This document shows positions 3,513 through 19,374 of a stretch of 64,000 nt of DNA, one piece after another (the stretch's first letter is position 1; every line of letters begins with the position of its first letter). The notes beneath the pieces are model-generated. The model did not search any database, had not been told where the DNA came from, and saw only the letters and a list, made by a program, of their open reading frames with translations. The DNA lies in contig CATQHS010000001.1 of NCBI GenBank assembly GCA_958296055.1, positions 1,522,277 to 1,586,276 on the forward strand, read 5' to 3'. This DNA comes from an uncultured Acidimicrobiales bacterium (GTDB taxonomy: Bacteria; Actinomycetota; Acidimicrobiia; Acidimicrobiales; Aldehydirespiratoraceae). Position numbers and translations under genes: made by a program.

Positions 3513-4667
3513 ATGAGCACGCGTGCAGGGCGATACGAACAACAGCCTACTGGCTACCAGGCCTTCGTCCCGAAGCCTCTTCCGCCTGACCCGCCGCTGC
3601 GGTGGGACGACGATCTGCTGCGACGGCTCTCGGACGCTGACGCGGCCGTGGGTCGCTTAGACGGTCTGGCTCGGAATCTGCCTAACCCTGACTTGTTTGT
3701 TGCCACCTACGTACGCCAGGAGGCGGTGCTGAGTTCTCAGATCGAGGGTACGCAGTCGAGCTTGGACGATGTGCTGGCCTTCGAGATCACGGAACTAGAG
3801 ACTGGGCTGCCCGCCGATGTCACCGAGACGGTGAACTACGTGAGAGCTATGAGCGAAGGGTTGCGGCTCCTTGACAAACTGCCGCTGTCGGGCTGGCTGA
3901 TTCGAGCTGTCCACAAAGAGCTGATGACGAACGTGCGGGGCGGTGAGCGGGACCCGGGCCAGTTCCGCCGCACGCAGAACTGGATCGGACCGGCCGGCTG
4001 CACCCTGGAGAAGGCCCGGTTCGTGCCGCCGGCGCCCGCCGATCTGCCCGCCGCGTTCGGGGAGCTGGAGCGGTTCCTGAACACGACGACTCAGCCGCCT
4101 CTGGTAGTGGCGGCGCTGGCCCACGCCCAGTTCGAAACCCTCCACCCGTTCCTAGACGGCAACGGCCGCACTGGGCGCCTGCTGATCACGCTGCTGCTGA
4201 TCGAGCGCAAGATGCTGAGCCATCCGTTGCTCTATCTGAGCTTGTTCCTCAAGCAGAACCGCAGCGAGTACTACGACCGTCTCGACTCCATCCGCACCCG
4301 CGGCGACTGGGAGGGCTGGCTGCGGTTCTTCCTGATCGGCGCGGCTGTGACCGCGGCCGATGCCCTCCGGGTGGCCACGGACGTGACGAAGTTGCACGAT
4401 CAGCACATGCGCTTGGTGGGGTCGGAGAATCTGGGCCGGTACGGGCCGCCGATGGTGGATCTTCTGTTCAAGCACCCGCTGGTAACGGTGAGATTCGCAA
4501 TCGAGCGGATCGGAGGCACCGCCCCCACCATCGGCAAGTTGCTCGAACGATTGACTGCCCTTGGGGTGGTCGAGGAAATCACCGGCAGGAGGTGGGACCG
4601 GTTCTATCGCCATTCGCCGTTTCTCGACTTGTTGGCCAGCAGCGATCCGACTGAAGATACGCCTTAG
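3513..4667 (+). CDS. Fic family protein (AMP-transferase type) with C-terminal winged helix
   Basis: Fic enzymes usually transfer AMP from ATP to a hydroxyl of a target protein. The 384-residue product has a Fic_N-type N-terminus, the inhibitory-helix motif SSQIEGT (Ser74...Glu78-Gly79), which places it in the class with an autoinhibitory helix before the core, and the intact catalytic motif [12 protein letters not shown] at residues 211-222 (catalytic His211). The last ~90 residues look like a winged helix ([22 protein letters not shown]). It appears catalytically complete and self-inhibited. Fic genes of this layout are common stand-alone genes in mobile or defence contexts; here it sits two genes away from the BREX operon. 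The target is unknown. Confidence 0.9.
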
Positions 4668-5640: not shown

Positions 5641-6210
5641 ATGGCTACTGAAGCTGCACCCGCCGACGAAGCTCAGATTGAGCGAATCGTCAGGATGGTG
5701 CTCTGCGTAGCGCGCCTGGGGGAAGTCGATCACCGAGGGTGGTGGGGCACCAACCTGTATGGAGCCGCGGGTCGGGTCGTGCTGCACCAGCGCCTCCCCC
5801 GCACTTGGCGCATGGCCGCAGTGGAGCTGGATCTGGCCGCGGCGGCAAACCGGCACAACGAGATCCTTGACCGGCACAACGCGGTCCACCTTTTCAGCGA
5901 CAACTGGCCGCCACGACGCTGGGCGGGTGCCTGGGCGGCAGAGCAAAAGACAGCCACGCTTCCTGACGAGTTCTTCGAATGGCTCGAAACGGTTTCAATC
6001 GTCGATGTGAAAGATCATCTGAAGACTGAACGACCCGAGCGGAAGCTGGCTGCTGCCACCAAACCCAACGGTCAGATTCTTCGTGTCGGGTTCATCAGCA
6101 GGGACCATCTTGAATCGTCGGCCCGACTGGAGCCAGCCGTGGCTCAGTTGGCGGTTGCCTACACGGATCTAGGAGATTTTGCTGTTCCTTATTTGGAGGT
6201 CACAGGTTGA
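5641..6210 (+). CDS. brxE: BrxE family protein (first gene of BREX operon)
   Basis: 189 residues matching the BrxE pattern as I recall it: an N-terminal IVRMVLCVARLGE helix, WWGTNLYGAAGR, the LPRTWRMAAVELDLAAAANRHNE block and a VHLF motif after the NEILDRHN segment. BrxE is known from type 6 BREX loci, where it precedes brxA; its biochemical role is not established. The ATG at 5641 has only a weak ribosome site (TAGGT). The gene ends in TTGA, its stop overlapping the TTG start of brxA by 4 bases, so translation is probably coupled. GC is moderately high, closer to the host than brxA-pglX. Confidence 0.8.
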   Translation: MATEAAPADEAQIERIVRMVLCVARLGEVDHRGWWGTNLYGAAGRVVLHQRLPRTWRMAAVELDLAAAANRHNEILDRHNAVHLFSDNWPPRRWAGAWAAEQKTATLPDEFFEWLETVSIVDVKDHLKTERPERKLAAATKPNGQILRVGFISRDHLESSARLEPAVAQLAVAYTDLGDFAVPYLEVTG

Positions 6211-7001
6211 AGGATCGAGGATCGGACCCGAAGCTGAACGGGCTGAGTTCAAACATCGTCAAAGGTGGCGCTTTGATCGATGACACGGCCCGGTTCGTGC
6301 TGGCGTGGGACCGTTCATTGACGCCCGGACAGAATCTCGACCGGGTCGTGAAGGAGAATTTGCTAGGATTGCCGAGCCGATCTCGAGCTTCTGACATCAC
6401 TTGCTATGCCCTTGGACCTCGTTTTGCGAGACCTGGATCCGAGGTGGTTTGGGCGCTTCGAACACTCCTCCAGAACCGCCCGGCCTTCGTGGATGCCTGT
6501 TACTACGAAGCCACGCGGGCCGATGCACTACTGGCCATATTCGCCCAAAATGCGATGATGGGTTGGTATGTCGAAGGTCGTCGGCAGATTGATGTCGGAA
6601 CAGTTCGAGATTGGCTCTCTGACATGACCGTGGCTGACATCATCCCGATCTGGTCTGATTCGCTCACACAACGCGTTGCACAAGGACTCATTGCAACACT
6701 TCGAGATTTTGGACGTCTCATAGGTGCTCAACGCTCGCACCGCAAGGAAATTGCCCAACCTGGTATCTCGATGGAAAGCTTTGCTTATGTAGCTTACCGG
6801 CTTCATCAGCAGGGCGAATCGAGCCGTGCCATCCTCTCATCGGAAGTTTGGACTCGTTGGCTTCTCAATATGGATCGAGTTGATGAACTGATGCACCGGT
6901 TAGCGTCACTTGGGATTGTGTATTACTCAGTGGCTGGTTCGGTACTACGAATTGATTGGCGTGTGGAATCACTCCAGGAGATTGCCGATGCCGCTTCCTG
7001 A
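6207..7001 (+). CDS. brxA: BrxA (DUF1819 family), BREX component
   Basis: 264 residues with the BrxA/DUF1819 layout: an N-terminal IVKGGALIDDTARFVLAWD segment, an all-helical middle and a winged-helix-like C-terminus ending VYYSVAGSVLRIDWR. BrxA proteins are small DNA-binding components required in type 1 BREX; the precise step is unknown. The start is a rare TTG at 6207 that overlaps the brxE stop. The gene overlaps brxB by 14 bases. Base composition falls well below the flanking chromosome from here on. Confidence 0.87.
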   Translation: MKDRGSDPKLNGLSSNIVKGGALIDDTARFVLAWDRSLTPGQNLDRVVKENLLGLPSRSRASDITCYALGPRFARPGSEVVWALRTLLQNRPAFVDACYYEATRADALLAIFAQNAMMGWYVEGRRQIDVGTVRDWLSDMTVADIIPIWSDSLTQRVAQGLIATLRDFGRLIGAQRSHRKEIAQPGISMESFAYVAYRLHQQGESSRAILSSEVWTRWLLNMDRVDELMHRLASLGIVYYSVAGSVLRIDWRVESLQEIADAAS

Positions 7002-7563
7002 ACCACTTCGAAAAATTGCAAGCCGTATCGTCGATTTCCATGATCGCCAATCGACTCCACCATTTCTAGTTTACGTATACAACCCTAAGGATGAGTATAT
7101 CGTCCGTCGAGAGCTGGATGATCTCCGACGGTGGTTGGAAGCTGAACCGCGCGCAATCACCTGCGAAATGATCTCACTAGCTGAGATCTTCTGGGATGCG
7201 CTAGAGGATCATGGCCATCTAGAACTAGTGATAGAAGCTGAACGTGCTGGTGACTACGCTGAAGCGAAACTTGCGATTAATCAAATATTGGCGAATCCAC
7301 CTACGTTGGCGGAACGGGTTACACAAAAAGTGGTGAATCACAACGATGCACGATCGGCAGTATTTCTGTGCCGAGCGGGTGCTTTGTACCCAGCCCATAG
7401 AACGGGCCCTTTACTTGATGCGCTCAGAGACCAAGTAAACCGACCAGTCACGATGCTGTATCCAGGACGAATTTTAGGTGACTATGGTCTCGAGTTCATG
7501 GGTAAGAGTGAACCGGCATATGGATATCGGGCCCTTATTATTCCCAGAGGTAACTCATCGTGA
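6988..7563 (+). CDS. brxB: BrxB (DUF1788 family), BREX component
   Basis: 191 residues from an ATG at 6988, which has CAGGAG eight bases upstream inside the end of brxA. An upstream in-frame start exists but lacks a ribosome site. The family signature PVTMLYPGRILGDYGLEFMG lies near the C-terminus, and FLVYVYNPKDEYIVRRELDDL at the N-terminus resembles other DUF1788 proteins. BrxB is an essential but biochemically obscure component of type 1 BREX. Its stop overlaps the GTG start of brxC by four bases. Confidence 0.9.
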   Translation: MPLPEPLRKIASRIVDFHDRQSTPPFLVYVYNPKDEYIVRRELDDLRRWLEAEPRAITCEMISLAEIFWDALEDHGHLELVIEAERAGDYAEAKLAINQILANPPTLAERVTQKVVNHNDARSAVFLCRAGALYPAHRTGPLLDALRDQVNRPVTMLYPGRILGDYGLEFMGKSEPAYGYRALIIPRGNSS

Positions 7564-10500
7564 ATATAAGTGATATCTTTAGCCCCCTCACCAGACGAGA
7601 TATCAAAGAGGTGGTCAAAGTTGATGACGAGGACTCAGTACTAACAGAGATTGAGGAGTATGTTCTTACTGACCACATTAAGGAAGAGTTGACTAAAGCT
7701 CTGGATGTATATCAGGAGACGCTACACAATCCTAGCCATGAAATTAACATGTGGGTTAGCGGATTTTTCGGCTCTGGTAAATCTTCTTATGCTAAAATTT
7801 TTGGATATCTGCTCGCTAATCCCATTATTGATGATAAAGCAGTTAGTGACCGATTCTTTGAGCTGAACAATATTCCGAAAGCTCGAGCATTACTTGAAAG
7901 TATTCATGCTACGGTAATAACCAAAGTTGTGCTGTTAGATCTGAACACTTCGCCTAACGTGCTTGATGAAGGAGAACCGATCGTTTTGCCCATCTACAGA
8001 ACGCTGCTTAGGGCCTTTGACTATAGTGGTGATTTTACACTATCTGAGTTGGAGTGGGAGCTTGAAAAAGAGGGTACTCTCAATAGCTTTATCGAGCGAT
8101 ACGAAGAAATCTATCGGGCACCTTGGACGGAACAGCGTAATATAATCATCGCAAAGAACAGAGCTAGTCGAATACTTCACGAACTCGAACCCGGTACTTA
8201 TCCGGAGGCTGACTCATGGTCCAAATCTGTTGCTCCCCCAACGATCACTACCAAATGGTTCGTTCATCGAGCGGGCGAAATACTAGACCGACGCTGTGAA
8301 AGTAGAGCTCGAATGGTGTTCGTCGTGGATGAGGTGGGCCAGTATGTGGCTCGATCTACTGACCGGATGCGCCATCTCCAAGGGTTGGCCGAAGAATGCC
8401 AAAAAACTGAGAGTCGGATCTGGTTGGTAGCGACTTCTCAAGAGAAGCTGACTGATGTAGTGGATAGTCTAGAAGGCAAACAGACTGAGCTAGCTAAAGC
8501 GCAGGATCGATTTCCGATCCGGGTTGATCTGTTGCCATCAGATATCGATGAAGTAACCGGAAGGCGGGTGTTGGACAAAACGGCTGAAGGGGCAGCACAG
8601 GTACGAAAGCTGCTGGCTGCGAATCGCAATCAGCTCGCGGCATCAGTTTCGCTTCAATCCGAGCGCCATCAACCTTTCGCCGATGATGATCTCATTCGCC
8701 TTTACCCGCTTGTCCCATACCAATTGCAAATTCTGATAGAGGCGGTTTCAGCTAGACGAGCACAGGGCAGTGCGCCTACTACTATGGGCGGATCGAACCG
8801 AACTCTGATCCGCCACGCACATCAGCTCATCTATCACCCAGATGTTGGATTGACTAATAAACCTGTTGGTAAGTTAGCTACCTTGGATCTTTCGTACCGA
8901 CTTTTGGAGGACGTGATTCCCACATCATGGCGTTATGAGGTTGATCAAGTAACCGACAAACATGGCAACGACAGCTTTGCAGCTAGCGTTATAAAAATCA
9001 TAGCTTTGTGCAGTGAAGTACCGGGCGTTCCATTAACGCCTCGGAATCTTGCCGTTATGCTCCACCCTGCTATCTCGGCTGATTCTGTAGTTGCTGATGT
9101 AATTACTGCTCTTCAGCAACTTGAATCCGAAAACCGGATTAGAGAAGGGGAAAACGGTTACCGACTGCAGAGTCCTAAACAGAAAAACTGGGAGGTCACC
9201 CGACGCGGCATTGAAATGAAACCCAGCAACGCGGTCCAGTTGAGGCAGAAAGTTCTAAAGGATGAGCTTGGCTCGCTGACGGTCACAAAAGGGCGGGCTT
9301 TCAAAGTCGGGTTGTTCGTTGAAAATCAGAGAATGACCGATGGTCATATCAGTCTTGACTTAAGAGATGCGAATGATATTCAAGAGCTGATTAGCATCTC
9401 GCGTTCGAATGAATTTCATAATAGAATCTTCTGGACTTATAGAATGGCTAACGATACTTGGGATGCGTTATCTGAATTGTACCGCAGTGTTGAAATGGTT
9501 AACCGCTACGATAATCCAAGCCAAAATGATGAGCAGCGAGCATTATTAGTTGAGGAACGTAATAGACAAGATAACTTCGAAAGAAGAGCCATCAATTTGC
9601 TGGTGCGAGATCTTACCGTAGGTACAGTTATCTTCAATGGAAACGGTATCGAACTTCAAACACCTTCCGTAGGATGGACTATTCGTTCAGTGGCCGATGG
9701 TATAATGCTAGAGCGGCTAGACAAGATTTATCCTGAACGAGAATTGTTTGCCACTAATGTAACTAGATCTGATGTCTTGACGGTTTTATCTGCTGACACT
9801 ATAGATGGGTTTCCAGATAGGTTTGGATCTGATGGATTAGGGCTATTTCGTGAAACGGCTAAGGGTCGTGAACTTGCATCGGACATTGGCGCTGTCAAAG
9901 CTGTCATGACGTATATCGAGTCTAGGAACCAATATGGTGAAATTCAAAGTGGAGGACAACTAGAAAATCACTTTGGTAGCTGTCCTTATGGTGCAACGGT
10001 GGAATCACTTCAGGCGATGCTAGCTGTTGCCATGAGGTCGGGTTTGTTGGAAGTGGTGTCCCAGGCATCTCATATCACCTCATCTACGGATTCGCGACTT
10101 GGATCAATCTTCGGTCAGCTTCCAAAATTTCGAGCGGCCACTTTTAAACCTGCCGATAACTCCGGCACCTCTTTAGATATGAGAGGTGAAGTGGCCGAAT
10201 GGCTCGGTTCTATGACGGGAGAGTTACCCTCCTTGGCTCCTAGTGATCTAGCTGATGCCTGTCGAGAAGCATTCAAGGAGCTTATTTTGCCATGCAACAA
10301 AACACAATCGACACTTGATGGTCTTGGTCTAACTGTGCCTGCAATACTAATGACAATGAGTGAACTCCTCAACCAATTGGCAAATAAGGATGATGCCATC
10401 GTTATAGAGACTGTTCACAAGTATCGAACCGACCTGGAAGCTGGTAAGCACCGTGTCATGAAGATGATAGAATTGATAGAAGCAGATCTGGAAGTGTTGC

Positions 10501-11027
10501 GAAATGCAGTTCAAATCAACTCGCTGAATAGTGGTTCCGAAGATGAAGACATCGCTCGTATGAGTTATGAATTGAGTGCTAAGCTTAATCGGGCTCGCTA
10601 CGACGAAGATATTGCTGAAATCACGAGCCTCACACGTCAAATTGATGATGCGGTTAGTCGAGAACGAGAGTCGCTTCGTGTCAGCATTGAGAATGCTATA
10701 TCTATTGCAGTGAATGATCTGCGTTCCGACTATCCATCGATCAATGAAACTATTTTTATAAAACACACTGAGCGATTGCATGAACTTGCTAAGCCTAACG
10801 AACTGAAAATTTTACGAGCTAACAACTTAGCAGTAGAGAAAATGGTAAATGATGTTGCTGATTTACTAGCTAAACTGTCGACCACTAGAAGTGTTAGACT
10901 CGTTCGTATCGGTGATGTCTGGAGGACGCCTATCACATCTCCTGAAGATCTGAATTCAGCTCTGGACTCCATTCGTGAAGCCGTTTTAGATCAACTCGCA
11001 GACGACACCGAAGTGCGTTTAAAGTGA
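7560..11027 (+). CDS. brxC: BrxC, BREX P-loop ATPase
   Basis: The large ATPase of BREX, 1155 residues, close to the ~1200 typical of BrxC. The Walker A motif GFFGSGKSS sits at residues 68-76, with a Walker B-like VVDEVGQYV near 255-263. The C-terminal third is helical with coiled-coil-like stretches. BrxC is required for BREX defence and methylation in characterised systems and probably acts in a complex with BrxB and PglZ. The GTG start overlaps brxB and the stop overlaps the GTG of pglX, four bases each. The gene is notably AT-rich compared with the host, consistent with transfer. Confidence 0.95.
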   Translation: MNISDIFSPLTRRDIKEVVKVDDEDSVLTEIEEYVLTDHIKEELTKALDVYQETLHNPSHEINMWVSGFFGSGKSSYAKIFGYLLANPIIDDKAVSDRFFELNNIPKARALLESIHATVITKVVLLDLNTSPNVLDEGEPIVLPIYRTLLRAFDYSGDFTLSELEWELEKEGTLNSFIERYEEIYRAPWTEQRNIIIAKNRASRILHELEPGTYPEADSWSKSVAPPTITTKWFVHRAGEILDRRCESRARMVFVVDEVGQYVARSTDRMRHLQGLAEECQKTESRIWLVATSQEKLTDVVDSLEGKQTELAKAQDRFPIRVDLLPSDIDEVTGRRVLDKTAEGAAQVRKLLAANRNQLAASVSLQSERHQPFADDDLIRLYPLVPYQLQILIEAVSARRAQGSAPTTMGGSNRTLIRHAHQLIYHPDVGLTNKPVGKLATLDLSYRLLEDVIPTSWRYEVDQVTDKHGNDSFAASVIKIIALCSEVPGVPLTPRNLAVMLHPAISADSVVADVITALQQLESENRIREGENGYRLQSPKQKNWEVTRRGIEMKPSNAVQLRQKVLKDELGSLTVTKGRAFKVGLFVENQRMTDGHISLDLRDANDIQELISISRSNEFHNRIFWTYRMANDTWDALSELYRSVEMVNRYDNPSQNDEQRALLVEERNRQDNFERRAINLLVRDLTVGTVIFNGNGIELQTPSVGWTIRSVADGIMLERLDKIYPERELFATNVTRSDVLTVLSADTIDGFPDRFGSDGLGLFRETAKGRELASDIGAVKAVMTYIESRNQYGEIQSGGQLENHFGSCPYGATVESLQAMLAVAMRSGLLEVVSQASHITSSTDSRLGSIFGQLPKFRAATFKPADNSGTSLDMRGEVAEWLGSMTGELPSLAPSDLADACREAFKELILPCNKTQSTLDGLGLTVPAILMTMSELLNQLANKDDAIVIETVHKYRTDLEAGKHRVMKMIELIEADLEVLRNAVQINSLNSGSEDEDIARMSYELSAKLNRARYDEDIAEITSLTRQIDDAVSRERESLRVSIENAISIAVNDLRSDYPSINETIFIKHTERLHELAKPNELKILRANNLAVEKMVNDVADLLAKLSTTRSVRLVRIGDVWRTPITSPEDLNSALDSIREAVLDQLADDTEVRLK

Positions 11028-14000
11028 CGACAATTTCGCCCGATAATCTGAGTACTTTGACGGCAGAGCAACGCGTCGTGTTGGAAAAATTGCTGCAGAA
11101 AATTCGCCGTTGGGTAGAGAATGACCTCGTTGAATCACTGTCAGGGAGATTCGGGATACAGACTGATGGCCGTATTGAAACTTTAGATTCTCTGTCACTG
11201 TCATCTACTGAGTTGGCGATACGGAAAGACTTGGTAGCAGTGATTGAATATCTTCGCGCTGAAGGTGAGGGCAATAAAGAATCAGTAGCACGGCTAGTTA
11301 GAGAGGCTGCTTTCAGTCACATAAATAGATTTATCGCTGTAAGAATTGCTGAAGCTATTGGACTGATTCCTGAGACAATGGCCCGTGGCTTGTCATCGAC
11401 TGGATTTGTAGATTTCACCCAACTATCACCGACAGTTGCTCCTACTGAATGGTTGCGTTTTGGTGTGTTTATTAAAATTTGCGCTGATGAGTTAGCAACA
11501 GACATTCCAGCCTTGTTTGATCCTCGTAACCCGCTATTGAGCCTTGAGACTACTGAGCGAATTTTAGGTCAGGTGGTAGAGGAGATCATAACGGTGCCTG
11601 ATGGAATGTGGAAGGCACCAGATGTCTTAGGGTGGGCTTATCAGTTTTTTAACAGTGGCGAAGAGCGTCAGAAGATGCGAAAGGAATCACCTGCCCCTCG
11701 AAACTCTCATGAACTGGCCGTGCGAAACCAGTTTTTCACACCCGGCTATGTGGTTGACTTCTTAGTTCATAATGGGCTTGGTGCTTATCTGGCAGCGGGA
11801 TTCCCTGCCCTGGTCAATGAATTGCCTCTGCTTCTAGAGGTTCCTAAAGAACCAATTGAGATTAATCTTAATACAGTGAGTGTTCTAGATCCAGCTTGTG
11901 GCTCAGGTCACTTCTTGTTAGGAGCTTATGACATCCTTGAAAAGGCTTGGCAGCTTGCTGGGCTTGATCCTGCTAAGTCAGCTCCTGCAATTGTGGGGTC
12001 GTTGTGGGGAATCGATATTGACCCGCGTGTCGTTCAAATTGCCCAAGCTGCAGTAATTTTTAGAGCCAGACGGCACTGCAAAAATACCGATCTTCCTACT
12101 CCAAACATCATTTGTGCCCGAGCCTTACCGGCCGGGTCAGAGGTAGACGAGTTCGTTGAAGATCTGGATACCCATGTTGCTCGGGTCGTACGAGCCATAG
12201 CTAGCGAATTGAATAACGCGCCCATATTGGGCTCACTGTTGAAGGTTGAGGAGAGACTCTCCAGCGAGGTAGGTGATATTTTTGGAACGGGTGTAATCGA
12301 AGGGACACTAGCGGAAGGTGCCAATCCTAAGTCCCCCCTTTCGGTAAAAGTCCAAGTCTTAGATGCACTGGGCAGCATAGCGGGCTCGGCAACAGCGACG
12401 GCTCCGCAACGTCTCTTTGCGGCGCAAGCTCAAGATGCTGTTCGGTTCGTTGATGCATTGAACCGCCGCTACACAGCCGTGCTCATGAATCCACCTTTCG
12501 GAGAACCGGTGGCCAATACAAAGCCATATCTGAAGGTCGCCTATCCATGGATTCCGACTAAGGATTACAATCTTCTTGCCGCCTTCGTTGGGCGGGGGCT
12601 TGAACTTTGTAAATCAGACTTCGGAACATGCGGTGCTATAACTTCAAGAGTTGGTTTATATATAAAGACATTTGGACTATGGCGACAGCAAATTCTCTTA
12701 GCTAAACATCTCGCTGCGTTAGCTGATCTTGGTTTTGGAGTCATGGATCAGGCGTTGGTGGAAGCGGCTGCCTATGTTTTAAAGAGTAGATCTTCGTCAG
12801 GACATGGACTTTTCGTGCGTCTGCTTAAAGAGCCGGACAAACCTAAAGCATTGAACGATGCGATTAAACGATATCGCGAAGGTCGCAATGATCCAAGAGT
12901 GTTTGAAATAGAACTGTCCGATCTCCATGCAATACCGGGATCGCCTGTCGCCTACTGGATGGCTGAATCTATTCGCAGGCTTTTCCGCCATTTTTTGTCA
13001 CTTGAAGGTAAAGGTGCTGACGTAAGAGTTGGACTTCAATCCGGCGACGATTTTAGATTCATTCGAACTTTTTGGGAAGTAGATTCCAAGCGTATCGGTT
13101 ATTCAAGAGAGGATACTAAGTGCGGCACGCGCTGGGTCCCTCACGCCAAAGGAGGTGAATATAGTCCTTATCATGCTAATATCTATCTACTTATTGATTG
13201 GGAGAACGATGGTGAACGGATTCGATCTATAAAAGGGCACCAGAACACTATAAAGGGGCACCAGAACACGCGATTTCTTTTCTCACCCGGTCTTACCTGG
13301 TCACGCCGTACTAACTCTGGATTTGGTATCAGGATACTGCCCAATGGTACAGCCTTTGGTAATAAAGGTCCTGCGGCGATTCCTCGTTCGCGAATAAGTT
13401 TTTTTGCTTTACTTGGGTATCTTAATAGTCGGCTTGTTCAGGCGCTGATGGATGCGATGGTTGCTGCTGGTGAAGAAGTAACATCTGGGGGTGCGTCCCG
13501 CAGTTACGAAGTTGGATTGGTGAAAAAGCTTCCTTGGATTGATAGTTTAAACAATGATGAACTGGCCTTAGTTGCGTCACAAATGGCCGAGCGACGAGCA
13601 GCTCTCGACAACTATGATGAAGTAACATGCCGCTTCGTAGGTCCGCGACTCCATAATGAATCCATCCTCGATTTACACTTGGCTCAATTGGAAGACGGAC
13701 TTGAACTCGACAAGCTTGTAAACGCAGCGTTGGGTCTTAACTCGGCTGCTCTTAGTTATTTGGACGAAGAAGTTGGATTCTACCCGCTTACTTATCCTGA
13801 CAGGGAAGATCTGGATGATCGGATAGAAGAATTGTACAAGATCCCGATAAAACAGGTTATTGATGCTTTGATTGATGAACGGGGCGGATCGCGGGCCATT
13901 GCTAACCTCAGTTATGTTGCCGATCGACGAATCGAAGTAATTTCGCATGGTCTTGAAGTGAATCCGTACTCGATTGTTAGAGTGGTGAAAGAGCGGAAGT

Positions 14001-14857
14001 TGATCGCATATGGTGAAGCAGAAGAAAATGCTTTTAGACTTGTCTCCTATCTTATAGGGGCTAGCTTTGGACGATGGGATTTACGGATCGGATGCGATCC
14101 GGCTAGGGCTGATTCATCCGTCGATCTGTTCGCTCCTCCGGCTCGCTACTCTCCGGGATCACTGTTTGGTAATGAAGCTGACCGCCAAAACGTTACTCCG
14201 CCTGGCTATCCGATCCAACTTCCCCCTGATGGAGTGCTGATTGATCAGGCCGGTCATGACTGGGACATCAGCAGAATGATAAAGCGAATTGGCGAAGTTC
14301 TTTTTGATTCTGATAATAAACTGCTGGACGATGCTTTATCGATTTTAATGACACGGTCTGACCTAACCCAGTTCCTACGCACTCAATTTTTTCGAAAACA
14401 CTTGACGATGTATTCAATGAGTCGGCGCAAAGCTCCGATCTATTGGCAATTACAGGTCCCATCGAAGACATGGGGAATCTGGCTATATGCTCCAAAGTTG
14501 TCTCGAGAGATGTTGTTTGCGATAGTGCGGGAGACTGAACAGCGCAAACAATTAGCCGAACGACACATTGAACGACTCCAGCGTGAAGTTGCTTCCGAGG
14601 GCGCAGTACGCAGAGCGAGCCAAGTGGCCAAGGAGTTAGATAATGAGCAAGGCTTGGCAGCGGAGCTAGCCAGGTTCCGTTCTGAAGCCGAACGGATCGC
14701 CAACCTGGGATGGGAACCCGACCTTGACGATGGAATGATACTCAATGCAGCCCTATTGGCCGATTTGTTTCCAGCCTGGCCAGGTGCAAAAGAGTATCGC
14801 GACGAACTACGAAAGGGGAAGTACCAGTGGGCGACGGTGTCTCAGTACGCCATATAG
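11024..14857 (+). CDS. pglX: PglX, BREX adenine-specific DNA methyltransferase
   Basis: 1277-residue N6-adenine methyltransferase that marks host DNA at the BREX recognition site. Motif I (DPACGSGHF) is at about residue 289 and the catalytic motif IV NPPF at about 489, both intact. Large N- and C-terminal regions provide target recognition and protein contacts. An in-frame 21-bp tandem duplication (13228-13269) doubles the heptapeptide IKGHQNT near residue 736, probably in or near the target-recognition region. The gene overlaps brxC by four bases and pglZ by 31 bases. It is AT-rich like brxC. Confidence 0.95.
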   Translation: MTTISPDNLSTLTAEQRVVLEKLLQKIRRWVENDLVESLSGRFGIQTDGRIETLDSLSLSSTELAIRKDLVAVIEYLRAEGEGNKESVARLVREAAFSHINRFIAVRIAEAIGLIPETMARGLSSTGFVDFTQLSPTVAPTEWLRFGVFIKICADELATDIPALFDPRNPLLSLETTERILGQVVEEIITVPDGMWKAPDVLGWAYQFFNSGEERQKMRKESPAPRNSHELAVRNQFFTPGYVVDFLVHNGLGAYLAAGFPALVNELPLLLEVPKEPIEINLNTVSVLDPACGSGHFLLGAYDILEKAWQLAGLDPAKSAPAIVGSLWGIDIDPRVVQIAQAAVIFRARRHCKNTDLPTPNIICARALPAGSEVDEFVEDLDTHVARVVRAIASELNNAPILGSLLKVEERLSSEVGDIFGTGVIEGTLAEGANPKSPLSVKVQVLDALGSIAGSATATAPQRLFAAQAQDAVRFVDALNRRYTAVLMNPPFGEPVANTKPYLKVAYPWIPTKDYNLLAAFVGRGLELCKSDFGTCGAITSRVGLYIKTFGLWRQQILLAKHLAALADLGFGVMDQALVEAAAYVLKSRSSSGHGLFVRLLKEPDKPKALNDAIKRYREGRNDPRVFEIELSDLHAIPGSPVAYWMAESIRRLFRHFLSLEGKGADVRVGLQSGDDFRFIRTFWEVDSKRIGYSREDTKCGTRWVPHAKGGEYSPYHANIYLLIDWENDGERIRSIKGHQNTIKGHQNTRFLFSPGLTWSRRTNSGFGIRILPNGTAFGNKGPAAIPRSRISFFALLGYLNSRLVQALMDAMVAAGEEVTSGGASRSYEVGLVKKLPWIDSLNNDELALVASQMAERRAALDNYDEVTCRFVGPRLHNESILDLHLAQLEDGLELDKLVNAALGLNSAALSYLDEEVGFYPLTYPDREDLDDRIEELYKIPIKQVIDALIDERGGSRAIANLSYVADRRIEVISHGLEVNPYSIVRVVKERKLIAYGEAEENAFRLVSYLIGASFGRWDLRIGCDPARADSSVDLFAPPARYSPGSLFGNEADRQNVTPPGYPIQLPPDGVLIDQAGHDWDISRMIKRIGEVLFDSDNKLLDDALSILMTRSDLTQFLRTQFFRKHLTMYSMSRRKAPIYWQLQVPSKTWGIWLYAPKLSREMLFAIVRETEQRKQLAERHIERLQREVASEGAVRRASQVAKELDNEQGLAAELARFRSEAERIANLGWEPDLDDGMILNAALLADLFPAWPGAKEYRDELRKGKYQWATVSQYAI
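13228..13269 (+). repeat. 21-bp in-frame tandem duplication inside pglX
   Basis: Two 21-bp units, 13228-13248 and 13249-13269, differ at one base (A or G at position 7). Each encodes the heptapeptide IKGHQNT in frame. Slippage or recombination could add or remove seven residues without a frameshift. Confidence 0.9.
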
Positions 14858-17364
14858 TCGTGAACCTGGTCAGAGATCACCTAACTGATCAACTCATTCG
14901 CAAGCTAGACCGCTACGGGGTGGTGATCTGGGACGATTCTACCGGTGCCTATGGAGACATCGTGGCCGATTTGCCGCTACTAGATGTGGAGCTACGTTAC
15001 TTCAGCGGCAGTTGGTACGCGCTGCGTCGAGATGTCGAGAAGTTTTTGATCGCGGGATCAGAGCCACCAAGGTTACTGGTCCATTTACCCGTAAGCAGGC
15101 CGGATCCGGATCCTTTGGAGGAGCTTAGAGCTATCGGTACAAGCTATCGTATTGCTCTACCTACCCTGCTGAAACAGTCACTGACTGATCAATTTACCGA
15201 ACGGCGTCTTACTGATATCGGGCTGCAATCCAGAACTCTTAGGGAAGCTGAAGCTGCTCTCGAACGCGCAGATTACAATACCGATGCTCGCCTGATCTCT
15301 ATCGTCGGAGACTCCTCAGTGGAAAGTATAGTTGCTCATCTTCTGAGTGGTCTACACACTGAAATATTTGACGAACCTGACTTAGGTGCTGTAGTACGAC
15401 AAACATTTTCTGACTCACTCGGTGGTGATTACACAGATCTGACTGGAGATGAACTCAGAACTGCTGCCTTCCGCCAAATTATTCTTGTGTTGATGTATGA
15501 GGCAGTAGAACAGCTTCCACAAGAATTATTGGGAGCCTTTGAAATCCCTAATGCGAGCCAATGCAGATCTTGTCGCTCTATACTTGAAACCCTTAGATCG
15601 GATACAACCCTACATGATGCATATATAGAACTAGCTAATCGTGTTGATGAACAACTCCATTTAGCGGTATTGCTAACTTGGGATAAATCGTTGGTATCAT
15701 TCGATGTCACGGCCGTGATCGAAAAACTGGCAATCATGGCGGCACTTCAGTTTTTTCAAACAGGTAAGTTTATCGAAGCTCAAACTTTGGCAGACCAACG
15801 ACTTACACACAGTTGGTGGGCTCAATATGATACTCCGGGTAAAACGAACGCTGCAACGAAGCTAAGGGCCATTGCAACGCTAGCTGAAATCGCTGAATTA
15901 ATGGCACAGTCTATACCTCGAGTATCGTCGTTGCGGGAACTGGCTAGGTGGTACAAGGAACAAGGTTGGAAGGTTGATTCTCTCTATCGTCGAGGCGAGT
16001 TTATCCGTGTAACCGCTCGCAGCGATCTCCGAGAGTTTGACGACTTGTTCGATTCTACTCGGATCAATTACGGGAACTGGCTTGACTCTGTCCTGCGTCA
16101 GACAGCGAACATCGCTTCGGCTGTTGAACTAGACACTCACGAACTTCAGCGCTCCATACATGAACGTTACGTTAGCAACGATTCCGAGCGCTGCGCTTAC
16201 GTATTGGTGGATGCTCTCCGTTACGAATTGGGATGCGATTTGGCTGAGAGATTAGGTAATAGTGTCAAGGCACAAGTAGGTATTGATGCGGCCGTTGCCA
16301 CACCTCCAACTATCACCCCGGTGGGTATGGCGTCTCTGCTCCCCGGCAGCGAAACTTCTTTCGGAATCGAACTAAGCGACAGCGATGAACTGATCGTAAA
16401 GGTAGGCGGACGGCCAGTACAAGGTGTCAGTGATCGTATCGGCCGCCTCGAACAGGCCCATGGACCTGTAGCTGATCTAGTCTTAGATGATGTTGCACAG
16501 TCCTCAAATAGTAGCCTGAAGAATCGGATCGGAAAAGCTTCCTTGATTCTAGTCCGTTCAAGCGAAATTGATGCCCACGGAGAATCGGATTGTCTCTCGG
16601 CGAGCTGGGTTTCTTTCAACGGCATACTCGATATTCTTTGCACCGCTGTGGCTAAACTACTCCATGCAGGCGTTCGCAAAGTGATTATAACATCTGACCA
16701 TGGGTTTCTGGCAGTCCACCAGCTCGGTCCTGATCGCCGTATCGATAAACCCGTGACTGGCGCAGGAAACCAACACCGTAGAGCCTGGATCGGTCGCGGC
16801 GGTGTCGCAAGCGAGTCGGCCGTAAAGGTGGCACTGGCCGACTTCGGCATCAGCGGCGATCTCGATATTATCACGCCGCGCGGATTGGGCGTATTCACCA
16901 GCGGCGGTGGTCTCCAGTTCTTCCACGGCGGACTGTCGCCTCAGGAACTGGTAGTCCCGGTCATCACCGTTGTAGCCGACGAGACCACTCTCGAACCCAG
17001 CTATGAGATTTCTTTGAGGGTTGCCGGTGATAAGATCACCACTGGAGTGATCGCGGTCACCGTCGGCATGCTCGCCAATGATCTGCTGACCCGCGAATCC
17101 CGAATCCGGCTTCAACTTGTGCATAATGACCGGCAAGCGGCGGTGGTCTTCGGCGGTGATGGTGTTGACCAGGCGACCGGGATCGTCACCGTGAGCATTG
17201 ATCGTTCTTGTGTGGTCCAGATGCAAGTGACCACGAACCTAGCGGCCGGATCGACCGCCACGCTGGAAGTACTCGATGCAGCTACCGGGGTTCGTCTCGG
17301 CGATTTCCAAGTCGAAGTGTCCGCCAACGTGATCGTGGAAGACTTAGAAGATGATCTCGACTGA
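14827..17364 (+). CDS. pglZ: PglZ, BREX alkaline-phosphatase-superfamily protein
   Basis: 845 residues of the PglZ family, a core BREX protein with an alkaline-phosphatase-like fold. Metal-site motifs are visible: VLVDALRYE (Asp462), ITSDHGF (Asp624-His625) and HGGLSPQELVVPV further on. PglZ is needed for BREX immunity; nuclease activity has been reported for some members. The GTG at 14827 follows GAAAGGGGAAG and lies inside the end of pglX. GC content rises noticeably in the 3' half, so the operon is not compositionally uniform. A 15-base gap separates it from brxL. Confidence 0.95.
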   Translation: MGDGVSVRHIVVNLVRDHLTDQLIRKLDRYGVVIWDDSTGAYGDIVADLPLLDVELRYFSGSWYALRRDVEKFLIAGSEPPRLLVHLPVSRPDPDPLEELRAIGTSYRIALPTLLKQSLTDQFTERRLTDIGLQSRTLREAEAALERADYNTDARLISIVGDSSVESIVAHLLSGLHTEIFDEPDLGAVVRQTFSDSLGGDYTDLTGDELRTAAFRQIILVLMYEAVEQLPQELLGAFEIPNASQCRSCRSILETLRSDTTLHDAYIELANRVDEQLHLAVLLTWDKSLVSFDVTAVIEKLAIMAALQFFQTGKFIEAQTLADQRLTHSWWAQYDTPGKTNAATKLRAIATLAEIAELMAQSIPRVSSLRELARWYKEQGWKVDSLYRRGEFIRVTARSDLREFDDLFDSTRINYGNWLDSVLRQTANIASAVELDTHELQRSIHERYVSNDSERCAYVLVDALRYELGCDLAERLGNSVKAQVGIDAAVATPPTITPVGMASLLPGSETSFGIELSDSDELIVKVGGRPVQGVSDRIGRLEQAHGPVADLVLDDVAQSSNSSLKNRIGKASLILVRSSEIDAHGESDCLSASWVSFNGILDILCTAVAKLLHAGVRKVIITSDHGFLAVHQLGPDRRIDKPVTGAGNQHRRAWIGRGGVASESAVKVALADFGISGDLDIITPRGLGVFTSGGGLQFFHGGLSPQELVVPVITVVADETTLEPSYEISLRVAGDKITTGVIAVTVGMLANDLLTRESRIRLQLVHNDRQAAVVFGGDGVDQATGIVTVSIDRSCVVQMQVTTNLAAGSTATLEVLDAATGVRLGDFQVEVSANVIVEDLEDDLD

Positions 17365-17379
17365 GAAAGTATCACCTGC

Positions 17380-19374
17380 ATGACCGCGTTTCACGATCGA
17401 CTCGACGAACTGGCCAACCGCCACTTACCAGGACGAGTGGTGCGCAAAGATCTAGTGCGACAAGTGAAGGTTGGAGTTAGCGTTCCGGTCTACGTACTCG
17501 AATTCCTGCTCGGCAAGTACTGTGCCTCCTCGGACCCTGCGGCCATCGAAGCGGGACTAACCGTCGTCAACCAGGCGCTGGCAGAGAACTTCATCAGGCC
17601 GGATGAATCAGAGCAGACCAAAGCGAAACTAAAAAAGAAAGGTAAGCACCGACTCATCGACAAAGTAGACGTACGATTTGTTGAGAGTGATAAGAAATTC
17701 TGGGCCACCCTTCACAACTTCGGATCCAAGTTCGTCCACATCCCTGAAGAGATCGTCTACAAGTACGATCGTCTGCCCGGCGGCGGCGTCTGGTGTCAGA
17801 TTGATCTCGTCTACAATGACCTTGAGGACACCGCACAGAGGACGCCCTTCTACATTTCAGCTTTGAAGCCAATCCAAGTCGCCGCCTTTGACCGGGATGC
17901 CTACTTCGAAGCTCGTCGCCACTTCAGCCGGGATGACTGGCTTGATCTGGTCATCCGGTCTGTCGGTTTGGAACCGGTCGCGTGTGACTTGAGGACCAAG
18001 CTCTTGGTCGTCACTCGTCTCATTCCCATGGTCGAAAGTAACTACAACCTGATCGAACTCGGTCCTTGGGGTACCGGTAAGTCCTTCGTATTCAGAGAAT
18101 CCAACCCGAACACCATTCTGATATCTGGCGGCAAAGTCACCGTCGCCCAACTCTTTATGAATATGTCGACGGGACGGGTCGGCCTGCTCGGTATGTGGGA
18201 TGTAGTCGCTTTCGACGAAGTCGCCGGATTGCAGATGCCGGATTCCACCTTAATCAACATGCTCAAAGACTTCATGGAGTCGGGCTCTTTCGCCCGAGGA
18301 AAGGAGGAGGTGCCCACCGAAGCATCCCTCGTGTTTATCGGAAACACCTCCAAGGCTCACGAGGAGTTGGTTCGTACTGCCCATCTGTTCGCAGACCTGC
18401 CGCCCGCCATGATCGATCCCGCCTTCCTTGATCGCATGCACTATTACCTTCCGGGCTGGGAATTGCCGAAGCTCGAGAAGCGGCTGTTCACCGATCACTT
18501 CGGCTTTGTCTCGGACTACTTCGCGGAAGCGCTGCGTCAGCTCCGCAAACAAAGTTTCGTGCGAGCCGTAGACAGTGACTTCTCGCTCGGCTCTCATCTG
18601 GCCGCTCGCGACGATAAAGCGGTCCGCAAAACGGTTTCGGGTCTGATCAAGATCCTGCACCCCCACGGTGAGTGGAGCCACGGAGATCTCCGCCAGTACT
18701 TGGAATTCGCGCTGGAGGGCAGACGCAGGGTGAAAGAGCAACTCAAGAAGTTGGCTGCTTACGACTATGCTAAAACCGATTTCTCCTATGTCGAGAATGA
18801 CACAGCCAGAGAGACTTGGGTGGAAGTCGTGGAGCAACTTCAAGATTTTAATGATGAGTCGGATGTGGACGAACAAGCTACCCGAGTTTTAGCCGCAGTG
18901 TCTATAGCCGAGATCATCGAGAGCGGAGAGAGCAAGACGGTCGAGTTCAAACGAACTGGCCGGTACAACCTGCATACGGGCAGCCGAGACGAGCGATTGG
19001 AGCATGAGATCGTCAAGTGTGTCGCAGGCTTCATGAATGCAAACGGCGGTGTTCTTTTGATCGGAGTGACTGACGACAGACAAATCTCCGGGATGGCAGA
19101 AGATTACAAGCTGACGGGTGACCGTGGCCGGGACGGGTTCGAGAACTGGTTGACGACAAAGCTAGGGGGAGAACTCGGCCGACCGGTGGTGGCATCATTC
19201 TTCGAAGTGAGCTTCGATGCATTACCGGAAGGCGATGTGTGCCGCGTCGATGTGAGAATGAGCAACCAGCCGGTGTATGCGGGTAAGGAAGCGGAGTTTT
19301 TTGTTCGGATGGGCAACTCGACCCGCTCTTACAACACTCGGGACGCTCTCGAGTACATCAACGCTCGCTGGTAA
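17380..19374 (+). CDS. brxL: BrxL-type AAA+ protein with C-terminal AlbA_2 domain
   Basis: 664 residues. Residues 1-500 are a classical BrxL: an N-terminal domain, Walker A GPWGTGKS at 228-235, Walker B VVAFDEV near 275-281, and the DFMESGSFARGK and FIGNTS blocks. Known type 1 BrxL proteins continue into a Lon-like protease domain. Here, from about residue 510, the protein instead has a Schlafen AlbA_2 domain (SKTVEFKRTGRYN, then NANGGVLLIGVTDDR, ending FFVRMGNSTRSY). I see no Lon Ser-Lys protease motif. AlbA_2 domains are usually linked to nucleic-acid binding. The gene closes the BREX operon; the next gene is convergent and host-like. Confidence 0.93.
   Translation: MTAFHDRLDELANRHLPGRVVRKDLVRQVKVGVSVPVYVLEFLLGKYCASSDPAAIEAGLTVVNQALAENFIRPDESEQTKAKLKKKGKHRLIDKVDVRFVESDKKFWATLHNFGSKFVHIPEEIVYKYDRLPGGGVWCQIDLVYNDLEDTAQRTPFYISALKPIQVAAFDRDAYFEARRHFSRDDWLDLVIRSVGLEPVACDLRTKLLVVTRLIPMVESNYNLIELGPWGTGKSFVFRESNPNTILISGGKVTVAQLFMNMSTGRVGLLGMWDVVAFDEVAGLQMPDSTLINMLKDFMESGSFARGKEEVPTEASLVFIGNTSKAHEELVRTAHLFADLPPAMIDPAFLDRMHYYLPGWELPKLEKRLFTDHFGFVSDYFAEALRQLRKQSFVRAVDSDFSLGSHLAARDDKAVRKTVSGLIKILHPHGEWSHGDLRQYLEFALEGRRRVKEQLKKLAAYDYAKTDFSYVENDTARETWVEVVEQLQDFNDESDVDEQATRVLAAVSIAEIIESGESKTVEFKRTGRYNLHTGSRDERLEHEIVKCVAGFMNANGGVLLIGVTDDRQISGMAEDYKLTGDRGRDGFENWLTTKLGGELGRPVVASFFEVSFDALPEGDVCRVDVRMSNQPVYAGKEAEFFVRMGNSTRSYNTRDALEYINARW

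What the first reader, a model, noticed from the sequence alone, without database searches (positions are those of the whole stretch)
18907..19374. BrxL with a Schlafen AlbA_2 domain in place of the Lon-like domain
The AAA+ part of BrxL is intact, but the C-terminal ~155 residues read as AlbA_2 (VEFKR..., NANGGVLLIGVTDDR). Characterised BrxL proteins end in a Lon-type domain. The swap would change the effector from protease-like to nucleic-acid-directed, a possible new BREX effector.
Basis: partly seen in the sequence, partly recalled or inferred. Interest (0 to 1): 0.8.

Follow-up and report, generated by a model that had tools for sequence, protein, structure and literature searches.

The report
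BREX ring ATPase with Schlafen tail
A bacterial anti-phage protein (BrxL, a DNA-encircling ATPase of the BREX system) carries, in place of its usual inactive protease-like tail, a Schlafen-type domain with the same three acidic residues that human antiviral Schlafens use to cut tRNA, and this swap recurs in several bacterial phyla.

Summary
Window 17380-19374 (+) is one 664-aa open frame: BrxL_N, BrxL_ATPase and a C-terminal SLFN_AlbA_2 domain (PF04326, E=7e-16 alone), with no trace of the Lon-like domain. It is the last gene of a complete BREX operon (BrxE-BrxA-BrxB-BrxC-PglX-PglZ-BrxL) on a 50% GC island in a 66-68% GC genome. It is not an assembly accident: the same fusion, intact, lies in seven other genomes (Actinomycetota, plus MAGs labelled Acidobacteriota and Myxococcota), directly after PglZ where the contig reaches that far. 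A tree of the BrxL core demands at least two separate swaps. The predicted tail fold matches SAMD9 and Schlafens, and E517/E522/D565 align with the SLFN13 catalytic triad. The same module also ends GmrSD, HsdR, type IIG and helicase proteins, so it is a portable tail on DNA-restriction enzymes. The interpretation needs correcting: the usual BrxL tail is already a dead protease, and nuclease (HKD) tails on BrxL are published. Best reading: an RNase (probably tRNase) effector controlled by the BrxL ring; activity is not shown. New variant of a known kind.

The parts
17380..19374 (+). brxL-AlbA_2 fusion gene, 664 aa
17422..17814 (+). BrxL_N (PF20442), residues 15-145
17848..18786 (+). BrxL_ATPase AAA+/MCM-like (PF13337), residues 157-469; Walker A GPWGTGKS 228-235, Walker B DVVAFDE 274-280 (E280 aligns with E280 mutated in 8EMH)
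18835..18903 (+). low-complexity linker between the core (ends at E485-Q486) and AlbA_2, variable in length among relatives
18928..19329 (+). SLFN_AlbA_2 domain (PF04326), residues 517-650
18928..18930 (+). E517, aligns with rSLFN13 E205
18943..18945 (+). E522, aligns with rSLFN13 E210 and with SLFN14 E211 (the residue mutated in 9JR9)
19072..19074 (+). D565, aligns with rSLFN13 D248
5641..6210 (+). BrxE family protein
   Evidence: NF033447, 1.7e-24
6207..7001 (+). BrxA
6910..7563 (+). BrxB
7560..11027 (+). BrxC
11024..14857 (+). PglX (BrxX) adenine methyltransferase
14827..17364 (+). PglZ

Best explanation
BrxL-AlbA_2 is the restriction-side motor of a type-1-like BREX system whose ring ATPase carries a Schlafen-type ribonuclease as its C-terminal effector. 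Shown by computation: intact BrxL core, AlbA_2 fold, conserved three-acid site, fixed place at the end of BREX operons, repeated swapping. Inferred: BREX (PglX/BrxC/PglZ) marks or finds unmodified phage DNA, BrxL assembles as rings around it as the Acinetobacter BrxL does, and assembly brings six to twelve AlbA_2 domains together at the equator where the Lon-like tails normally meet. AlbA_2 units pair there and, once clustered, cut RNA (most likely tRNA, as SLFN11/13/14 and SAMD9 do), stopping translation if DNA exclusion is slow or blocked. The domain may also replace the Lon-like tail in holding two rings together.
For: Triad E517/E522/D565 invariant in all ten aligned BrxL fusions, with E-E spacing of 5 as in SLFN13, and kept in 38 of 39 related modules; mutating these residues diminishes or kills SLFN13 RNase activity (PMC5862951), and mutating two of the equivalents in SAMD9L abolishes its translation block (PMC11221667). 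A profile of the module finds SLFN14 at 8.8e-12, and the E522 column is the alanine in the SLFN14 E211A structure. Fold match to the SAMD9 tRNase domain and Schlafens. The same module caps GmrSD, HsdR, Eco57I-type and REase_MTES_1575 helicase proteins that already bring their own DNA-cutting or DNA-modifying parts, so an RNase adds something a further DNase would not. Separate Schlafen RNases are widespread next to BREX loci (PMC12839542), so fusing one to BrxL tightens an existing link. BrxL assembles as rings on DNA with its C-terminal domains at the equator (PMC10164562).
Against: No activity is shown for any BrxL-AlbA_2. The same acidic residues are kept in AlbA_2 proteins whose function is not known to be nucleolytic (L003, L110, L112), so conservation of the triad does not by itself separate nuclease from binder. 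AlbA_2 is often annotated simply as a DNA-binding domain (PMC6299218). The ring assembly was not modelled; the full-length model has a poor AAA+ part.
Confidence: 0.5

Rival explanations
1. The AlbA_2 tail is a DNA nuclease or DNA-binding arm: the ring threads phage DNA and the tail cuts or grips the same DNA, as proposed for BrxL-HKD.
For: AlbA_2 of SAMD9 was solved bound to DNA (7KSP); BrxL holds dsDNA in its chamber (PMC10164562); the HKD tails in the same slot are regarded as DNases (PMC12839542).
Against: Active Schlafen relatives with this triad are RNases; the same module sits on enzymes that already cut or modify DNA.
Confidence: 0.27
2. The tail is structural: a dimerising, nucleic-acid-touching module that replaces the Lon-like domain in joining two BrxL rings and in tuning the ATPase, with no catalysis.
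For: The Lon-like tail has that role and no protease site; AlbA_2 is described as having multimerisation properties (PMC11221667); a Lon-like tail mutation changes ATPase activity.
Against: A purely structural role does not explain an invariant acidic triad; tails also include HKD nuclease and a protein kinase, which look like effectors.
Confidence: 0.18
3. The fusion is a mobile-element or assembly artefact, or a decaying gene without function.
For: Some relatives are broken: a TAG in G216, a frame change in G1106, a deletion in G1182.
Against: Eight full-length intact copies, 100/100 support for the main clade, invariant active-site residues and the same operon position.
Confidence: 0.03

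Closest known systems
BrxL of Acinetobacter type-1 BREX (8EMC/8EMH; PMC10164562)
   Same: N-terminal region and AAA+ core, aligned over residues 6-486, same Walker B glutamate, same operon position
   Different: its C-terminal domain is Lon-like and protease-dead, and joins the two rings; here AlbA_2
BrxL-HKD (PMC12839542)
   Same: BrxL core with the Lon-like tail replaced by a nuclease-fold domain
   Different: HKD/PLD-fold DNase, not Schlafen; separate branches of the BrxL core tree
Schlafen RNases SLFN11/13/14 and SAMD9/9L tRNase domain
   Same: AlbA_2 fold and three-acid site
   Different: eukaryotic, two-lobed (SLFN) or STAND-linked (SAMD9); here a single AlbA_2 on a ring ATPase
BREX-adjacent Schlafen-histidine-kinase-wHTH proteins (PMC12839542)
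   Same: Schlafen domain encoded in BREX loci
   Different: separate gene, different partner domains; here covalently part of BrxL
GmrSD-AlbA_2, HsdR-AlbA_2 and similar (this work: L002, L026, L028, L030, L168)
   Same: AlbA_2 module at the very C-terminus, about 36-50% identical to this one
   Different: attached to other restriction enzymes

Membership tests
BrxL | BrxL_N and BrxL_ATPase domains | tested here: met
BrxL | Walker A and Walker B of the AAA+ site | tested here: met
   GPWGTGKS and DVVAFDE in sequence; E280 column shared with 8EMH
BrxL | last gene of a BREX operon | tested here: met
Lon-tailed BrxL (TIGR02653 full length) | Lon-like C-terminal domain | tested here: not met
   model matched only to 482 of 675; profile comparison 0.2%
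BrxL-HKD | HKD/PLD-fold C-terminal domain | tested here: not met
   no such Pfam hit; tails fall in a different cluster
SLFN_AlbA_2 (PF04326) | score above the curated cut-off and AlbA_2 fold | tested here: met
Schlafen-type nucleases | three-acid site corresponding to SLFN13 E205/E210/D248 | tested here: met
Schlafen-type nucleases | RNA cleavage | not testable with these tools
   needs purified protein
Type-1 BREX | BrxA, BrxB, BrxC, PglX, PglZ, BrxL | tested here: met
Type-6 BREX | BrxE present together with a helicase in place of BrxL | tested here: not met
   BrxE is present but BrxL is kept and the operon genes 5641-19374 are accounted for without a helicase gene

The most novel reading that the evidence does not exclude
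A dedicated Schlafen cassette is passed around bacterial DNA-restriction machines (BrxL, HsdR, GmrSD, type IIG, helicase-nucleases) as a built-in second line: the DNA-sensing ATPase or endonuclease directly switches on a tRNase joined to it, so one protein does both DNA exclusion and abortive translation arrest, and BrxL is an exchangeable-tail ring whose tails include dead Lon, HKD nuclease, Schlafen and, in one genome, a protein kinase.
Probability: 0.35. Interest if true: 0.8.

Novelty: new variant of a known kind. Interest (0 to 1): 0.6.

Why it matters
How BREX stops phages after it fails to find its methyl mark is still debated, and BrxL's role differs between hosts. A natural BrxL with a Schlafen active site gives a clean mutational handle (three acids, one domain) to ask whether BrxL delivers an effector, and whether BREX can act through RNA. 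The portable module also links prokaryotic restriction enzymes to the domain that human SLFN and SAMD9 proteins use against viruses.

Tried and rejected
Lon-type tail: rejected. HKD tail: rejected. Assembly artefact: rejected because the fusion recurs in eight intact copies. Carriage by plasmids: none of the 30 best of 334 plasmid records extends beyond residue 489; two records cover over 80% of the query but were not listed and not followed up; AlbA_2 alone hits 11 plasmids, none of them annotated as BrxL. Phage genomes: no match; viral contigs gave three AlbA_2 proteins, two with Pfam-identified partners that are not BrxL (GmrSD_N; Sigma70_r4/HARE-HTH) and one short ORF of 200 aa without a BrxL core. 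The AlbA_2 domain tree is too weakly supported to prove a donor. The full-length model could not inform on ring packing because the AAA+ part was of low confidence with only 20 rows. Literature searches found no description of BrxL with AlbA_2, nor of GmrSD or HsdR with it; the library lacks subscription journals and preprints, so absence there is weak evidence.

Full report
The frame 17380-19374 (+) encodes 664 residues. Pfam finds BrxL_N at 15-145, BrxL_ATPase at 157-469 and SLFN_AlbA_2 at 517-650; the last scores 54.9 bits in the whole protein and 59.3 bits alone, against a curated cut-off of 25.3. The NCBI model for Lon-tailed BrxL matches only to position 482 of 675, and the solved Acinetobacter BrxL aligns to residue 486 and no further. 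The AlbA_2 and Lon-like tail profiles show no similarity.

The surroundings are an ordinary and complete BREX operon: BrxE, BrxA, BrxB, BrxC, PglX, PglZ, BrxL. It fills 5641-19374 at 49.9% GC, while the flanks are at 68.1% and 66.2%, with a methionine sulfoxide reductase gene on the left and a short-chain dehydrogenase on the right. The island was therefore probably acquired from elsewhere (inference). BrxE is a type-6 mark, but a BrxL is kept and no helicase is present, so I call it type-1-like with BrxE.

The fusion recurs. A sample of 396 genomes of the phylum holds BrxL in 22, and in 7 of these (by my count of the table) the match runs into or through the AlbA_2 part. A scan of 84,980 species genomes gave further intact cases in MAGs labelled Thermoanaerobaculia (78% identical), Acidimicrobiia (76%), Myxococcales (75%) and Solirubrobacteraceae (68%). 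In samples of Myxococcota and Acidobacteriota the fusion was seen only in the genome used as the centre, so it is rare there, and MAG labels can be wrong. Where the contig reaches upstream, PglZ lies directly before the fusion and the other BREX genes before that (L034, L177, L178, L180, L182). Three relatives of the same order carry damaged or truncated copies, two of them with the AlbA_2 part.

Among 143 BrxL tails collected here, clustering gave 116 Lon-like, 11 AlbA_2, 7 HKD-like, one protein kinase (L017, Pkinase 1.3e-33), one odd tail that reads like a recombinase fragment and 7 with no tail or a contig end. The sample was drawn with this protein as query, so these are not unbiased frequencies. 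On a tree of the cores, nine AlbA_2 cores form one clade with 100/100 support, next to Lon-tailed cores, and L012 lies elsewhere, among cores with Lon-like and kinase tails; starred branches force at least two changes and none of 200 bootstrap trees has one. The tail has thus been exchanged at least twice.

The domain itself folds confidently (pTM 0.85). Foldseek and VIA-align put it with 3LMM, the SAMD9 tRNase domain (Z 13.0 for 7KSP, 12.1 for 9O0D) and SLFN14, 5, 11, 13 (Z about 10), well above unrelated rows at Z 5. A profile of the module finds SLFN14 with E=8.8e-12; in the SLFN14 E211A structure the mutated letter lies in the column of E522. E517, E522 and D565 align with E205, E210 and D248 of rSLFN13, whose mutation reduces or abolishes tRNA cleavage (PMC5862951). 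All three are invariant among the ten aligned fusions; of 39 modules only one HsdR-linked copy lacks the aspartate in register. Three AlbA_2 proteins of other architecture also keep them, so this is consistent with catalysis but not proof.

The same module is found at the C-terminus of other restriction proteins: GmrSD_N proteins (one in this very genome, L002, 45% identical), HsdR, an Eco57I-type protein, a REase_MTES_1575 helicase, sigma70_r4/HARE-HTH proteins and short proteins that look membrane-anchored by eye. I read it as a portable tail. As several of these hosts already cut or modify DNA, an RNase role is the more economical gain, hence the preference for it over a second DNase (inference).

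Known work: Lon-like BrxL tails lack the protease motif and join two rings tail to tail, with DNA in the chamber (PMC10164562). BrxL with an HKD nuclease tail is published, as are separate Schlafen genes beside BREX loci (PMC12839542). That paper states that the BrxL tail varies but its text does not name Schlafen or AlbA_2 among the tails; its supplements were not read. I therefore file this as a new variant of a known kind. The step from 'Schlafen fold with intact site' to 'RNase switched on by BrxL on phage DNA' is inference; confidence 0.5.

Noticed in passing
L017:1468-3936 (G289, same phylum): BrxL whose Lon-like tail is replaced by a Ser/Thr protein kinase domain (Pkinase 1.3e-33), directly after PglZ in a divergent BREX locus. 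I found no mention of such a fusion.
   Followed up: partly
L002 (G000:C1:2400930-2401439), L026, L031, L032, L115, L150, L175: GmrSD_N/DUF262 proteins end in the same AlbA_2 module; one lies in the window's own genome.
   Followed up: partly
L028, L030, L122 (HsdR); L168 (Eco57I); L027 (REase_MTES_1575 helicase): The same AlbA_2 module caps type I R subunits, a type IIG-like protein and a helicase-nuclease.
   Followed up: partly
L025, L029, L152, L195: Short proteins with apparently membrane-spanning N-termini (L025 and L029 read by eye) or without another Pfam domain, ending in AlbA_2.
   Followed up: no
window 5641-19374: BREX island at 50% GC in a 66-68% GC genome, neatly bounded by msrA and a short-chain dehydrogenase; BrxE together with BrxL mixes type-6 and type-1 marks.
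   Followed up: partly
L064:9947-11917: BrxL core running into what looks like a serine-recombinase fragment; may be a chimeric contig.
   Followed up: no
L110:3863-7028, L112:5412-6950: Separate AlbA_2 proteins a few kilobases from BrxL in archaeal-labelled BREX loci.
   Followed up: no
window 3513-4667: SoFic-like Fic protein (PADLOC SoFic 6e-114) upstream of the island.
   Followed up: no
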